Origin: Inediibacterium massiliense
GTDB lineage: Bacteria; Bacillota; Clostridia; Peptostreptococcales; Thermotaleaceae
Length of the DNA stretch: 64,000 nucleotides
NCBI RefSeq assembly: GCF_001282725.1
Contig: NZ_LN876587.1
Coordinates: 801,695-865,694 of the forward strand
Reading direction: 5' to 3'
Positions 20,829-61,604 of this stretch are shown piece after piece. A model generated the notes under the pieces. The model saw only the letters and a program-made list of their open reading frames with translations, ran no database searches and had not been told where the DNA came from. A program made the translations under genes and the position numbers. Within the stretch, counting starts at the first letter, position 1, and each line of letters begins with the position of its first letter.

Positions 20829-20844
20829 ATGGGCTTTTGTCTTT
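20808..20844 (+). terminator. Terminator of thiN
   Basis: An 18-bp stem: 20808-20825 pairs with 20827-20844 (AAAGACAAAAGCCC... / ...GGGCTTTTGTCTTT). The T-rich 3' arm and the position over the thiN stop codon make it a strong terminator. A degraded second copy of its core lies at 20932-20960. Confidence 0.85.
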
Positions 20845-20931
20845 ATAGCAAAGTTATAAAAAACGTCACCAAAGATGTTCCTTGTTTTTATAACTATGCT
20901 AAAACATAAATTTATTCAATAGTCTGCTAAT
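20845..20931 (+). repeat. Short copy (A) of the terminator-linked palindromic repeat
   Basis: The 54-bp core 20847-20900 has 16-bp terminal inverted arms (AGCAAAGTTATAAAAA / TTTTTATAACTATGCT, one mismatch). Inside are AACGTCAC and TGTTCCTT, the outermost internal segments of the two long copies at 23.9 and 61.4 kb. The roughly 110-bp centre of those copies is missing. The right flank (20901-20927) aligns loosely with the right flanks of the long copies, ending in AGTCT. No coding capacity. Confidence 0.8.
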
Positions 20932-22214: not shown

Positions 22215-23822
22215 TTGAAGGTTCAAATAATAGATGGAGTATTGCTCAAAAAGATGTTCATTCAAGGAGCAAATATATTAGAAGAAAATAAAGAAGAGGT
22301 AGATGGATTAAATGTATTTCCAGTTCCAGATGGAGATACTGGAACAAATATGTCTCTTACTATGCGTTCGGCAGCAAAAGAGATCAAAGAATTAGAAAAT
22401 AATAATGTAAAAGATATAGCAGAGAGTATGGCAAATGGATCTTTAATGGGAGCTAGAGGAAATTCCGGGGTAATTTTATCACAGCTTTTTAGAGGGTTTG
22501 CCAAGGAGTGTGAAAATAAAGAAGAATTAACAGTAGTAGACTTGGCAAATGCCATTAAGAGTGCTTCAGAAACAGCATATAAAGCAGTTATGAAGCCTAT
22601 TGAGGGAACTATTCTTACTGTAGCAAGGGAAATGGGAGAAAAAGCTATTCATATAGCAAAAGAGACAAAGGATATAGATATATTTTTAAAGTCTGTAATA
22701 GAATATGGAGAATATACATTATCTCAAACTCCTAATATGTTGAAAGTGTTAAAAGAAGCAGGTGTAGTAGACGCAGGCGGAAAAGGTCTTATTTTTATTT
22801 ATAAAGGTTTTTATGAAGCAATTACAGGAAAAGAGGTAAAGATAGAGCCAATTAAAATCTCAAATCCTGTACAAACAGAAAATAGAGGAATGCAAAATAT
22901 TGAATTTGGGTATTGTACAGAATTTATTATTAAAGGTAAACAAGTCGATATAGATATGTTTAAAAATAAAATAGGTAAATTTGGAGATTGTATGTTAGTA
23001 GTAGGAGATGGAAATTTAGTAAAGGTACATATTCATACAAATCATCCAGGTATTATTATAGAAAGTGGTCTTGAATTAGGAGAATTGATGAACTTAAAAA
23101 TTGATAATATGAGACTACAACATGAAAATAAAATTTTTGATCAAGTAGATGAAAAAGAAGAAATAAAGGAAGTTGGAATGATTACAGTCACTATGGGAGA
23201 AGGACTTACAAATATTTTTAAAGATTTAAATGTAGATAGGGTTATTACAGGAGGGCAAACTATGAACCCTAGTACAGAAGATATTAAAAAAGCAATTGAT
23301 GAAGTCCGTGCAAAGCATATATTTATATTCCCAAATAATAGCAATATCATACTAGCTGCTAATCAAGCAAAACAATTAAGTGAAAAACAAATTACAGTGA
23401 TCCCCACTAAGACTGTTCCACAAGGAATTGCAAGTATTTTAGCGTATCATGAAGATTTGGATATAAAAGAAAATGAAAAAAATATGATACAAGCTTTACA
23501 AAATGTAAAAACAGGACAAATCACTTATTCTGTCAGAGACACAAAATTTAATGATTTAGATATTTATAAAGATGATATTTTAGGAATGATGGATGGGGAA
23601 ATTATAGGGGTAGGAAAAGATATTGAAGAAGAGGCTTATAAGCTTCTAAAATATATGATTCAAGAAGATGATGAGATTGTTACTATTTTTTATGGAAAAG
23701 ATGAAGATGAAGATTGTGCTCATGAGCTTGCACAAAAAATACAAGAAGAGTATGAAGATATTGATGTAGAAGTTTATTCTGGAGGACAACCTCTTTATTA
23801 TTACATATTTTCTATAGAATAA
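22215..23822 (+). CDS. fakA: Fatty acid kinase catalytic subunit (DhaL domain, YloV/FakA)
   Basis: FakA phosphorylates fatty acids bound by a FakB protein; the acyl-phosphate then enters phospholipid synthesis through PlsX/PlsY. The 535 residues have an N-terminal DhaL kinase domain with NVFPVPDGDTGTNM (about 30-43, metal-binding Asp residues) and GARGNSGVILSQ, a middle domain (about 215-300) and a C-terminal DegV-like domain (about 315-535). The start is TTG at 22215, 8 nt after GAGGAGGTAC. No fakB gene is seen in the window; plsX is at 34.6 kb. Confidence 0.92.
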   Translation: MKVQIIDGVLLKKMFIQGANILEENKEEVDGLNVFPVPDGDTGTNMSLTMRSAAKEIKELENNNVKDIAESMANGSLMGARGNSGVILSQLFRGFAKECENKEELTVVDLANAIKSASETAYKAVMKPIEGTILTVAREMGEKAIHIAKETKDIDIFLKSVIEYGEYTLSQTPNMLKVLKEAGVVDAGGKGLIFIYKGFYEAITGKEVKIEPIKISNPVQTENRGMQNIEFGYCTEFIIKGKQVDIDMFKNKIGKFGDCMLVVGDGNLVKVHIHTNHPGIIIESGLELGELMNLKIDNMRLQHENKIFDQVDEKEEIKEVGMITVTMGEGLTNIFKDLNVDRVITGGQTMNPSTEDIKKAIDEVRAKHIFIFPNNSNIILAANQAKQLSEKQITVIPTKTVPQGIASILAYHEDLDIKENEKNMIQALQNVKTGQITYSVRDTKFNDLDIYKDDILGMMDGEIIGVGKDIEEEAYKLLKYMIQEDDEIVTIFYGKDEDEDCAHELAQKIQEEYEDIDVEVYSGGQPLYYYIFSIE

Positions 23823-23844
23823 GAAATGACGCAAGTCATTTCTT
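23821..23844 (+). terminator. Terminator of fakA, left duplicate
   Basis: AAGAAATGAC-GCAA-GTCATTTCTT, a 10-bp perfect stem followed by T, overlapping the fakA stop codon. The same 24-bp sequence, with one loop change (GTAA), recurs at 24050-24073 beyond repeat copy B. Confidence 0.85.
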
Positions 23845-24049
23845 TAGCTTATACACAAAGTTATAAAAAACGTCACTAATTTTTAAATTTGGAAAATATG
23901 AAGAAACGGTCGAAAATAGCATTACAAACTCGCTATGTTCAAACAGTGTAATGCTAATGATTTTCTTACTTATTCTATATTTTCACAAATTCTCAATAAT
24001 TGTTCCTTATTTTTATAGCTTTGATAAAAGATTATTTGTTAATAGTATA
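23845..24049 (+). repeat. Long copy (B) of the terminator-linked palindromic repeat
   Basis: A 205-bp insert lies between two copies of the fakA terminator. The palindromic core 23857-24022 has terminal arms AAAGTTATAAAAA / TTTTTATAGCTTT. Inner arms are AATTTGGAAAATAT with ATATTTTCACAAATT and AGCATTACA with TGTAATGCT around a loop containing AACTCGCTATGTTC. The whole core can fold into one long hairpin. It is nearly identical to copy C (61384-61551). No open frame of note and no transposase. Confidence 0.85.
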
Positions 24050-24080
24050 AAGAAATGACGTAAGTCATTTCTTGTTTTTT
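24050..24080 (+). terminator. Right duplicate of the fakA terminator
   Basis: AAGAAATGAC-GTAA-GTCATTTCTT followed by GTTTTTT: same stem as 23821-23844 and a better T-run. It stands 18 bp before the recG start. Confidence 0.8.
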
Positions 24081-24097
24081 ATGTGGAAGGTGATTGT

Positions 24098-26152
24098 ATG
24101 GAGTATCTAAAAAAAGATATACAGTATTTAAAAGGTGTGGGACCTAAAAAAGCACAATATCTTAAAAATTTAGGGATATGTACTATAGAGGACTTACTAT
24201 ATTTTTTTCCTAGAGAATACGAAGATCGAAGGGAGATAAAAAATATAGCTACTCTTTATGATGAAGAAAAAGTTACATTAAAGGTTACAGTTTGTGAAAA
24301 AACAGTAGAAAAATCTATTAGAAAAGGACTTACAGTTTATAAAGTACCTATTAAAGATTATACAGGAAGAGCATATGCAGTATTTTATAACACTCCTTTT
24401 ATAAAAAAGATATTTAAAAAAGATGCTAGATTATATTTATATGGAAAAATAAAAAAAGCATTTGGAGAAATACAAATATTACATCCAAGTTATGAATTTA
24501 TTGAAGGAGATACAAAAAATAGTGGGATTTTAAGTGTATATCCACTAACACAAGGCCTTACAAATAAAGATATGTCAAAATTTATAGATCATGTACTAGA
24601 GTATTTACATATGGAAGATGAATACCTTCCAAAAGAAACTATAAAAAGAAATAGGCTTTGTAGTCTTTGTGAAGCTCTTTTAAATATTCATAGACCAGAT
24701 TCTGTTAAAAAGCTTAAAATTGCAAAATTTCGTCTTGTTTTTGAAGAACTATTTATTTTACAGATAGGTTTGTGGCTCATTAAAAATAAATTTCATGATA
24801 ACAAAGAAGGTATTTTATTTCATAAAGATAAAAAAGTAGATGATTTTATTCACTCATTGCCATATCAATTGACAGATGCACAAAATAAAGTATTAGATGA
24901 AATTATACAAGATCTGACAAGTAAAAAAATAATGAATAGGCTTGTTCAAGGAGATGTAGGCTCTGGAAAAACAATTATTGCTTTTGTTTCGCTATATTTG
25001 AGTGTATTAAATGGATACCAAGGAGTTTTAATGGCACCAACAGAAATATTAGCACAGCAACATTTCCTATCAGCACAAGAGCTTTTAGCCCCATTAGGAC
25101 TCAATATTGAACTTCTAGTAGGAAGTGTTTCTAAAAAAAGAAAAGAGGATATACGGGAAAAATTAGAAAATGGAGAAATTCATATTATCATAGGAACACA
25201 TGCTCTTATTGAGGAGTATATAGCTTTTAAAAGTTTAGGACTTGTGATTACAGATGAACAACATAGATTTGGGGTAAGACAGAGAAAAATTCTCTCTAGC
25301 AAGGGAATCAATCCTCATGTGTTAGTTATGACGGCTACACCTATTCCAAGAACCTTAGGACTTATACTTTATGGAGATTTGGATATATCCATTATAGATA
25401 AGCTTCCTCCAGGAAGAAAAAAAATAAAAACTTATTGTGTAAAAGAAGAAAAAAGAAATGATGTATATGATTTTGCAAAAAAAGAAATAGTAGAAGGAAG
25501 ACAAATTTATGTAGTAGCACCACTTGTGGAAGAATCAGAAAATATAGAAGCAAAATCAGCTACACAACTTTATGAAGAACTTAAAAATACATATTTCAAA
25601 GAATTTCCTATAGGGCTTTTACATGGGAAAATGAAACCTTATGAGAAAGACGAAATAATGGAAGCATTTAAAAAAGGATATTTAAAAGTTTTAGTTTCTA
25701 CTACAGTCATAGAAGTAGGAGTCAATGTTCCTAATGCATCTGTTATGATTATTGAAAATAGCGAAAGGTTTGGACTTGCTCAACTCCATCAGCTCAGAGG
25801 AAGAGTAGGAAGAGGAGCGTATCAATCTTATTGTGCTTTAATCAATTATAGTAAAAGTAAATTATCTAAAGAAAGAATGGATATTATGCAAAAAAGCAAT
25901 AATGGATTTATGATCGCGCAAAAAGATTTAGAATTAAGAGGTCCAGGAGAATTTTTTGGAACAAGACAACATGGACTTCCAGAGCTTAAAATTGCAAATT
26001 TATTTAAACATATAAATATACTAAAACAAGCCCAACAGGAAGCTGCTCTTCTTTTGAAAGAAGATCCAAGTCTATTATTATCTCAAAATGTAGCTTTGAA
26101 AAATAAAGTTATAGAGAAATTTGGAGATCATATAACAGAAATTTGCTTATAA
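24098..26152 (+). CDS. recG: ATP-dependent DNA helicase RecG
   Basis: Remodels stalled forks and branched recombination intermediates. The 684 residues include an N-terminal wedge/OB domain (about 50-150), Walker A GDVGSGKTI (about 286-294), DEQH (Walker B, TDEQHRFGVRQR), SAT-like MTATPIPRT, and the helicase C-terminal lobe ending in QLHQLRGRVGRG plus the TRG-type tail. The GTG at 24083 is upstream of the GGAAGGTGA site, so the ATG at 24098 is used. Repeat copy B separates it from fakA, so it needs its own promoter, not clearly seen. Confidence 0.96.
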   Translation: MEYLKKDIQYLKGVGPKKAQYLKNLGICTIEDLLYFFPREYEDRREIKNIATLYDEEKVTLKVTVCEKTVEKSIRKGLTVYKVPIKDYTGRAYAVFYNTPFIKKIFKKDARLYLYGKIKKAFGEIQILHPSYEFIEGDTKNSGILSVYPLTQGLTNKDMSKFIDHVLEYLHMEDEYLPKETIKRNRLCSLCEALLNIHRPDSVKKLKIAKFRLVFEELFILQIGLWLIKNKFHDNKEGILFHKDKKVDDFIHSLPYQLTDAQNKVLDEIIQDLTSKKIMNRLVQGDVGSGKTIIAFVSLYLSVLNGYQGVLMAPTEILAQQHFLSAQELLAPLGLNIELLVGSVSKKRKEDIREKLENGEIHIIIGTHALIEEYIAFKSLGLVITDEQHRFGVRQRKILSSKGINPHVLVMTATPIPRTLGLILYGDLDISIIDKLPPGRKKIKTYCVKEEKRNDVYDFAKKEIVEGRQIYVVAPLVEESENIEAKSATQLYEELKNTYFKEFPIGLLHGKMKPYEKDEIMEAFKKGYLKVLVSTTVIEVGVNVPNASVMIIENSERFGLAQLHQLRGRVGRGAYQSYCALINYSKSKLSKERMDIMQKSNNGFMIAQKDLELRGPGEFFGTRQHGLPELKIANLFKHINILKQAQQEAALLLKEDPSLLLSQNVALKNKVIEKFGDHITEICL

Positions 26153-58199: not shown

Positions 58200-58440
58200 A
58201 ATGATAAAATTCTATCAAAAATGATCATCAAATAAGTAATAAGAAGTAGTAAGAAGGAAAGCTTTTTCAGAGAGTCGATGGTTGGTGTAAATCGATAAAG
58301 ATACCTTTTGAACTTGTCTTTATAAAATTTACTTATTGAAATCAATGAAGAGGACAATATTTGTCAATTAGGGTGGTACCGCGGGGGAATCCTCGTCCCT
58401 ATGTAGGGATGAAATTTTTCTGAGGTACTTTTTTTAATAC
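58200..58440 (+). ncRNA. T-box leader of leuS
   Basis: A tRNA-sensing leader. The T-box sequence AGGGTGGTACCGCG (58370-58384 region) pairs with the uncharged tRNA acceptor end. A likely specifier is CTT (Leu) at 58313-58315 in GAACTTGTC, in the 3' side of stem I. The competing terminator is at 58391-58435. Uncharged tRNA-Leu should favour the antiterminator and read-through into leuS. Confidence 0.92.
58391..58435 (+). terminator. Regulated terminator of the leuS T-box
   Basis: CCTC-GTCCCT-ATGT-AGGGAT ... GAGG, then TAC and seven T. The 5' arm follows the T-box directly, so it can be sequestered by the antiterminator. Confidence 0.85.
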
Positions 58441-58477
58441 ATAAAATATTATTTTAAATATATAGGAGGAAATGCAG

Positions 58478-61347: not shown

Positions 61348-61374
61348 AAATGGTGACCTAATGGTCACCATTTT
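61347..61374 (+). terminator. Terminator of ridA, left duplicate
   Basis: AAAATGGTGACC-TAAT-GGTCACCATTTT, 12-bp perfect stem, overlapping the ridA stop. 27 bp of it (61348-61374) recur exactly at 61578-61604. Confidence 0.88.
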
Positions 61375-61577
61375 ATTTGTAGAAAAAGTCATAAAAAACG
61401 TCACTAATTTTTAAATTTGGAAAATATATAGAAACGGTCGAAAATAGCATTACAAACTCGCTTTGCTCAAACAGTGTAATGCTAATGATTTTCTCACTTA
61501 TTCTATATTTTCACAAATTCTCAATAATTGTTTCTAATTTTTATGACTTTTCTAAGATGTAGTTTGTTTTTAGTTTG
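61375..61577 (+). repeat. Long copy (C) of the terminator-linked palindromic repeat
   Basis: A 203-bp insert between two identical copies of the ridA terminator. The core 61384-61551 has 14-bp perfect terminal arms (AAAAGTCATAAAAA / TTTTTATGACTTTT). Inner arms are the same as in copy B, including AGCATTACA / TGTAATGCT around a loop with AACTCGCTTTGCTC. In the core it differs from copy B at only about a dozen positions. No coding frame. Confidence 0.85.
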
Positions 61578-61604
61578 AAATGGTGACCTAATGGTCACCA
61601 TTTT
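61578..61604. terminator. Right duplicate of the ridA terminator
   Basis: Identical over 27 bp to 61348-61374. It lies between the repeat and the end of the minus-strand aminotransferase gene, so it may now end that gene's transcript too. Confidence 0.8.

What the first reader, a model, noticed from the sequence alone, without database searches (positions are those of the whole stretch)
23821..24073. Second element of the same family, flanked by duplicates of the unrelated fakA terminator
Here the duplicated hairpin is a different sequence (24 bp, one loop change), but the insert is the same family (205 bp, core 23857-24022). Two independent loci with different terminators, each duplicated, make chance very unlikely. 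They indicate that the hairpin, not its sequence, is the target. Both copies have the same orientation relative to the upstream gene.
Basis: seen in the sequence. Interest (0 to 1): 0.8.

Follow-up and report, generated by a model that had tools for sequence, protein, structure and literature searches.

The report
Hairpin-duplicating mini-transposon in gene terminators
A short mobile DNA element without genes has spread through this bacterium by inserting at the hairpins that end genes, leaving a copy of the hairpin on each side, so the end-of-gene signal is probably kept; its tips match a known family of jumping genes, IS1182.

Summary
A 205-bp insert (23845-24049) lies between two 24-bp hairpins that differ at one loop base, and belongs to a family of about 80-90 copies in this genome. 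The repeated hairpin is a target-site duplication: in the sister species, 27 of 32 orthologous sites (chosen for clear duplications) have one hairpin and no insert, 2 carry an element, 3 have neither, and none has two hairpins without an insert. At fakA-recG, 13 of 13 other family members have a single hairpin; both species of this genus carry the insert.

The element encodes no protein, occurs in several sizes, and its tips match IS1182-family insertion sequences. An IS1182 element in the same order (G093) shares 24 of 27 bases of one end, and its hairpin recurs on the far side at the two loci whose contigs could be paired. In 16 plasmid IS1182 loci, 24 of 26 recognised ends abut a hairpin; 6 loci have exact duplicates.

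I conclude: a non-autonomous IS1182-type MITE that duplicates terminator hairpins. Neither genome of this genus was searched for an IS1182 transposase. Orientation is biased 54 to 5.

The parts
23821..23844 (+). Upstream copy of the terminator hairpin (target-site duplication); overlaps the fakA stop codon
   Evidence: single hairpin at this place in 13 of 13 other family members
23845..24049 (+). MITE, 205 bp, no gene; same sense as fakA
   Evidence: absent from fakA-recG in 13 of 13 other family members, present in both species of the genus
24050..24073 (+). Downstream copy of the hairpin, followed by GTTTTTT; the likely working terminator
   Evidence: function inferred
22215..23822 (+). fakA (YloV/FakA family), upstream gene
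24083..26152 (+). recG, downstream gene
61348..61374 (+). Upstream copy of a different hairpin (27 bp) at the second full window copy
   Evidence: sister species has one hairpin here (L065/L210)
61375..61577 (+). Second full copy of the MITE in the window
61578..61604 (+). Downstream copy of that 27-bp hairpin, identical
20841..20930 (+). Short degenerate copy of the family after a hairpin; approximate limits
   Evidence: sister species lacks it (L063/L222)

Best explanation
The insert is a non-autonomous miniature transposon (MITE) moved by an IS1182-family DDE transposase. Shown by comparison: it inserts; its ends resemble IS1182 ends; its target is a palindromic hairpin of no fixed sequence, mostly at the ends of genes; insertion leaves the hairpin on both sides, centred on its dyad. 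Inferred: the transposase joins the two element ends at the 5' feet of the extruded hairpin or cruciform, so that repair copies the whole stem-loop; the downstream copy keeps the T-tract and still ends transcription, so the insertion is nearly harmless and adds a folded stretch of about 205 nt to the mRNA tail.
For: Empty sites: 27 of 32. Single hairpin at fakA-recG in 13 of 13 other family members. Repeats in 46 of 77, hairpins in 39 of these 46; hairpin abutting at least one end in 56 of 71 intron-free copies against 2.6% of random places. Repeat centred on the dyad (median asymmetry 0) and rising with the GC stem span (rho 0.50, p 0.002, n 36). Element ends GAG(C/T)TTGTAGACAAAG and CAGACTGTTGACAAACTATATTTTAGC match IS1182 ends CAGTTTGTAGACAAA and CAGACTGTTGACAAATTATATTGTAGA in G093, both different ends in the same asymmetry. 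G093 frame start resembles annotated IS1182 transposases (60% over 30 aa, E 4e-4), contig starts encode IS1182 C-termini (51-68%). Plasmid IS1182 copies: 24 of 26 ends abut a hairpin (null 1.2% of 4800), 6 of 16 loci with identical hairpins of 19-35 bp on both sides.
Against: About 26 of 77 copies show no duplication. Repeat length follows the full stem only weakly (rho 0.29, p 0.07). Repeat tracts in the 30 first sites were selected for clarity. 10 of 16 plasmid IS1182 loci lack a matching pair; 4 of these have two different hairpins. The element faces the gene with the opposite IS end from the G093 copies, so its polarity is not a family trait.
Confidence: 0.87

Rival explanations
1. [quoted passage not shown]
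For: Same target habit and similar duplication lengths: 16, 23, 25 and 26 bp at four IS1630 copies (passages of PMC3317919).
Against: No IS30 transposase in G000, G001 or eight other family genomes examined; the ends match IS1182 elements instead.
Confidence: 0.05
2. A MITE of the long-duplication branch of the IS1202 family (ISNCY).
For: That branch makes duplications of 16-28 bp (passages of PMC10132070).
Against: No ISNCY_2 transposase match in G000 or G001; the paper's passages name no hairpin targets; ends match IS1182.
Confidence: 0.02
3. Replacement of the hairpin as reported for IS1272, with no duplication; the double hairpin would have another cause.
For: IS1272 belongs to the IS1182 family. 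About 26 of 77 copies have no duplication and could be replacements; not tested.
Against: In 27 of 32 compared sites one hairpin became two, not none.
Confidence: 0.03
4. The two hairpins are an ancient tandem terminator and the element entered between them.
For: None found.
Against: 0 of 32 sister-species sites and 0 of 13 family members have two hairpins without the insert.
Confidence: 0.01
5. A functional RNA family of 3' UTRs kept by selection, its spread being secondary.
For: Consensus fold with 47 pairs, 9 of them with double changes; strong fold of the whole unit (z -7.4); biased orientation.
Against: Covariation term only -0.27; nested inverted repeats fold by construction; sites differ between the two species.
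Confidence: 0.06

Closest known systems
IS1272 and the IS1182 family (Wan et al. 2017, PMC5678879; abstract, passages, and part 1 of 2 of the discussion read)
   Same: Same transposase family by the end match; targets are stem-loops of unrelated sequence; four insertions immediately downstream of genes are reported.
   Different: IS1272 replaces the stem-loop and leaves no duplication; here the stem-loop is duplicated, the route the paper draws as an alternative (pathway b). IS1272 carries its transposase; this element carries none.
IS1182-family insertion sequences in plasmids and in G093 (loci L270, L273, L309-L324)
   Same: Ends CAGACTGT(A/T)GACAAA; hairpin at 24 of 26 ends; identical hairpins on both sides at 6 of 16 loci.
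   Different: About 1.5 kb with a gene; in 4 of 16 loci the two hairpins differ.
IS1630 (IS30 family; title seen in reference lists of PMC3317919 and PMC7648426; paper itself not held)
   Different: Another transposase family; autonomous.
MITEAba12 (PMC6382973, passages)
   Same: Miniature element of about 113 bp moved in trans by an insertion sequence with matching ends.
   Different: 9-bp duplications of no special structure; no orientation preference found.

Membership tests
MITE of the IS1182 family | Multicopy, short, no transposase gene | tested here: met
   77 anchored copies, size classes 73-268 bp; 20 further stretches around unpaired ends gave only short variants
MITE of the IS1182 family | Ends match those of an IS1182-family element | tested here: met
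   24 of 27 bases with G093; CAGACTGTAGACAAA-type ends at 16 plasmid loci
MITE of the IS1182 family | Same kind of target duplication as the parent | tested here: met
   Hairpin duplicated in 46 of 77 MITE copies, in 6 of 16 plasmid IS1182 loci and at two G093 loci across contigs
MITE of the IS1182 family | Active IS1182 transposase in the same genome | not tested
   The genome search cap reached; only held stretches compared, no hit in G000 or G001
IS1272-type stem-loop replacement | Target stem-loop lost, no duplication | tested here: not met
   27 of 32 sites went from one hairpin to two; copies without duplication not tested
IS30 (IS1630 type) | IS30 transposase | tested here: not met
   NF033563: 0 in G000 and G001
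IS1202 family (ISNCY) | ISNCY-type transposase | tested here: not met
   NF033594: 0 in G000 and G001
Known Rfam RNA family | Covariance model match | tested here: not met
   Only a T-box elsewhere in the window at gathering score

The most novel reading that the evidence does not exclude
A DDE transposase of the IS1182 family reads DNA structure rather than sequence: it measures the hairpin (duplication centred on the dyad, scaling with stem length) and duplicates it whole. The insertion polarity would be set by replication or transcription, because the hairpin is used when extruded from one strand. Through its MITE it has rewired the 3' ends of about 80 transcripts and built a repeated landing site that a group II intron in this genome now uses exclusively.
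Probability: 0.3. Interest if true: 0.7.

Novelty: new variant of a known kind. Interest (0 to 1): 0.52.

Why it matters
It is a natural experiment on structure-guided insertion: about 80 insertions, 27 of them with an empty site for comparison. It shows whole-hairpin duplication, the route drawn only as an alternative in the IS1272 model. It also shows how an element can fill terminators at little apparent cost, because the termination signal is copied rather than broken. The same habit in IS1182 copies from Firmicutes and Providencia plasmids suggests a rule that can be tested in the laboratory.

Tried and rejected
IS30, ISNCY/IS1202 and rve-domain transposases (an IS3-family element by model; an IstA/IstB-like pair that I recall as IS21) gave no element with these ends. 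Gene-bearing copies were sought in 20 stretches of G000 and G001 around unpaired end matches (the match list was cut, about 100 of 192 hits in G000 shown): none seen. Plasmid and phage records hold no copy of the MITE. Viral contigs gave one contig whose copy aligns exactly like a G001 copy, and nothing for the right end. In named genomes the left-end pattern hit 8 Anaerophilus nitritogenes stretches and one Cognataquiflexum aquatile stretch, the last with only a 22-base match, taken as chance.

Orientation: gene or chromosome arm? On C12, C13, C14 up to 0.95 Mb and the end of C11, 49 of 49 copies are plus; on C10, C11 below 250 kb and C14 beyond 1.3 Mb, 20 of 28 are minus. Arms were assigned by me from GC skew at the loci, which itself follows gene direction. 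Of 16 convergent or divergent sites 12 follow the arm. Where genes and arm disagree, 2 (L057, L081) follow the arm and 1 (L071) the genes; 3 (L038, L040, L070) oppose both. Not separated.

Decay of the upstream copy: where energies differ, the downstream hairpin is more stable in 19 and the upstream in 8 (p 0.052). An earlier run (20 to 8, p 0.036) had one misplaced row and is superseded.

Literature: searches. None of the listings showed an IS1182-family MITE or hairpin duplication by IS1182; only open-licence papers are held, so this is weak evidence. PMC3196728 (passages) lists an IS1182 element with 4-bp repeats, so hairpin duplication is not universal in the family.

Full report
Observation. 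The two 24-bp hairpins (23821-23844 and 24050-24073) differ at one loop base and enclose 205 bp. The first begins within the fakA stop codon; recG follows the second. The window holds another full copy (61375-61577) between two identical 27-bp hairpins and a short degenerate copy near 20849. The own genome (G000, 3.50 Mb, 14 contigs) has 77 places matching the left-end pattern. I fetched those 77 plus three more found by whole-element search. Counts below are for the 77; the three extra loci lack the anchor pattern and were dropped. Six further copies were confirmed by BLAST later (L176-L179, L181, L182) and are not in the counts.

Duplication. For each copy I compared 41 bases before the left end with 48 around and after the right end. 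46 of 77 score at least 12; 760 pairs from different copies had a 99.9th percentile of 11.2 and a maximum of 12.0. 39 of the 46 repeats are hairpins by shuffling. The right-end motif was weak (under 24 of 36) in 15 of 77, which lowers the yield. Six copies are split by a group II intron; read across it, 5 of 6 have the repeat (by eye). A hairpin abuts the upstream end in 29, the downstream end in 42 and at least one end in 56 of the 71 intron-free copies, against 2.6% of random places. Repeat length (12-29, median 23) rises with the span of the GC part of the stem (rho 0.50, p 0.002, n 36), less clearly with the full stem (rho 0.29, p 0.07, n 39), and is centred on the dyad (median asymmetry 0, mean 0.36).

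Empty sites. G001 is the only other genome of the genus in the set drawn. It is Anaerophilus nitritogenes MJB2 or its like: five contig lengths agree exactly. I searched it with the C-terminal ends of 32 genes upstream of copies with clear repeats. Loci for 30 came back, and I fetched the other two by place. Read by eye and checked by script: 27 of 32 have no element and one hairpin at the matching place; 2 carry an element (fakA-recG in the same orientation, and the L036 site in the opposite orientation); 3 (L056, L078, L083) have no element and no comparable hairpin; none has two hairpins without an insert. The script also gave one 16-base match inside the L107 orthologue, which I take as chance. 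Some sister hairpins are weak (L097, score 6.5). For fakA-recG, 14 other family members were examined: 13 had a fakA hit (G004 had none), and all 13 show one hairpin right after the stop codon. So the fakA insertion is older than the split of the two species, while most of the others came later or were lost in G001.

What the element is. 52 copies align over about 205 bp at 90% mean column identity. Size classes of 73, 83, 95-96, 157-158, 204-207 and 267-268 bp share the ends; the differences fit a 62-bp and a 110-bp module (my reading). No copy examined carries a transposase gene. Whole-element DNA gives strong matches only in G000 and G001 among 118 genomes; nine others give short matches near the threshold that I take as chance. 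The right-end pattern with up to 3 mismatches occurs in 3 of 393 genomes of the order: G000, G001 and G093. In G093 three ends each directly follow a different hairpin. Two of them run through a leader into an open frame, MLRKQDMINRDQLVLFTLDELVPSDHLLR, similar to annotated IS1182 transposases (60% over 30 aa, E 4e-4); the third (L276) shows no such frame before its contig ends. Three other G093 contigs start inside IS1182 C-termini (51-68% identity) and run into the other end. Two of those are followed by a hairpin found at a left end on another contig: AGAAGAATGCAAGAGCATTCTTCT, 24 of 24, and ACCTTAGGGTTATAGCCCTAAGGTT with one change. The third (L301) has no partner. That each pair of contigs is one insertion is inference.

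Generality. Of 347 plasmid records matching that frame start I fetched 16 loci, picked by hand for diversity, not at random. 26 ends with the CAGACTGT-type motif were recognised and 24 abut a hairpin, against 1.2% of 4800 random windows. L315 and L317 share one hairpin and are not independent. Six loci (L310, L312, L316, L318, L319, L322: Peribacillus, Enterococcus twice, Cytobacillus, Sutcliffiella, Providencia) have identical hairpins of 19-35 bp on both sides. Four (L309, L311, L313, L321) have different hairpins on the two sides. The other six showed no repeat; for L314, L317 and L323 the transposase end was my guess. Two transposases were confirmed by NF033551.

Mechanism. Wan et al. (PMC5678879) report that IS1272, an IS1182-family element, replaces stem-loops without duplication. 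They draw an alternative in which joining at the 5' feet of the stem-loop would duplicate it whole. The sites here are what that alternative predicts; the chemistry is inferred. After insertion the T-tract lies behind the downstream hairpin (4.8 T in 8 bases, against 3.5 after the upstream copy), so termination is probably shifted downstream, not lost. That the downstream copy is better kept is only suggested (19 to 8, p 0.052).

Orientation. Of 59 co-directional sites the element's sense agrees with the genes in 54; 13 sites are convergent, 3 divergent, 2 undetermined. Orientation agrees about as well with the chromosome arm, so the cause is open. In G093 the other IS end faces the upstream hairpin.

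RNA. The consensus fold has 47 pairs, 9 with double changes, but a covariation term of only -0.27. The unit with both hairpins folds far better than shuffles (z -7.4), as nested inverted repeats must. I do not count this as evidence of an RNA function.

Nested intron. A group II intron (RT by TIGR04416, RF02003, RF00029) has 6 matches in G000 and none in G001. All 6 sit at the same point in the element's left end, shortly after the hairpin; the aligned introns are 99.8-99.9% identical.

Verdict. The element is best described as a MITE of the IS1182 family; the presence of the parent in this genus is untested.

Noticed in passing
L226-L231 (G000 C11, C13, C14): A group II intron with 6 copies in this genome lies in all 6 cases at the same point in the MITE's left end, just after the duplicated hairpin: a mobile intron living on a mobile element.
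   Followed up: partly
L032, L083, L076, L096 near the right end: A 62-bp module (AAGCAACGGAAATC...TTTCGTTGGCGCCATGAGC) is nested in the 157- and 267-bp forms of the MITE; similar words occur near other terminators, also in G001 (L209).
   Followed up: no
L041 against the 205-bp copies: The 110-bp inner part of the 205-bp form is missing from the 95-bp form and is bordered by near direct repeats AATTTTCAA and AATTCTCAA: either an insertion into the MITE or a deletion from it.
   Followed up: no
L270, L273, L276 leaders; window 23924-23943: The motif ACTCGC-(2-3)-GCTCAAAC occurs in the MITE loop and in the leader of the G093 IS1182 copies (3 of 3), but in the opposite orientation to the shared end, and in none of 16 plasmid IS1182 loci.
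   Followed up: partly
L309, L311, L313, L321: IS1182 copies with two different hairpins at their two ends, perhaps from recombination between copies.
   Followed up: no
window 58227-58403: T-box leader (RF00230, 104 bits) upstream of the frame at 58472.
   Followed up: no
G001 C54 (L206), orthologue of L036: The same gap carries the element in both species but in opposite orientation, suggesting independent insertions.
   Followed up: no
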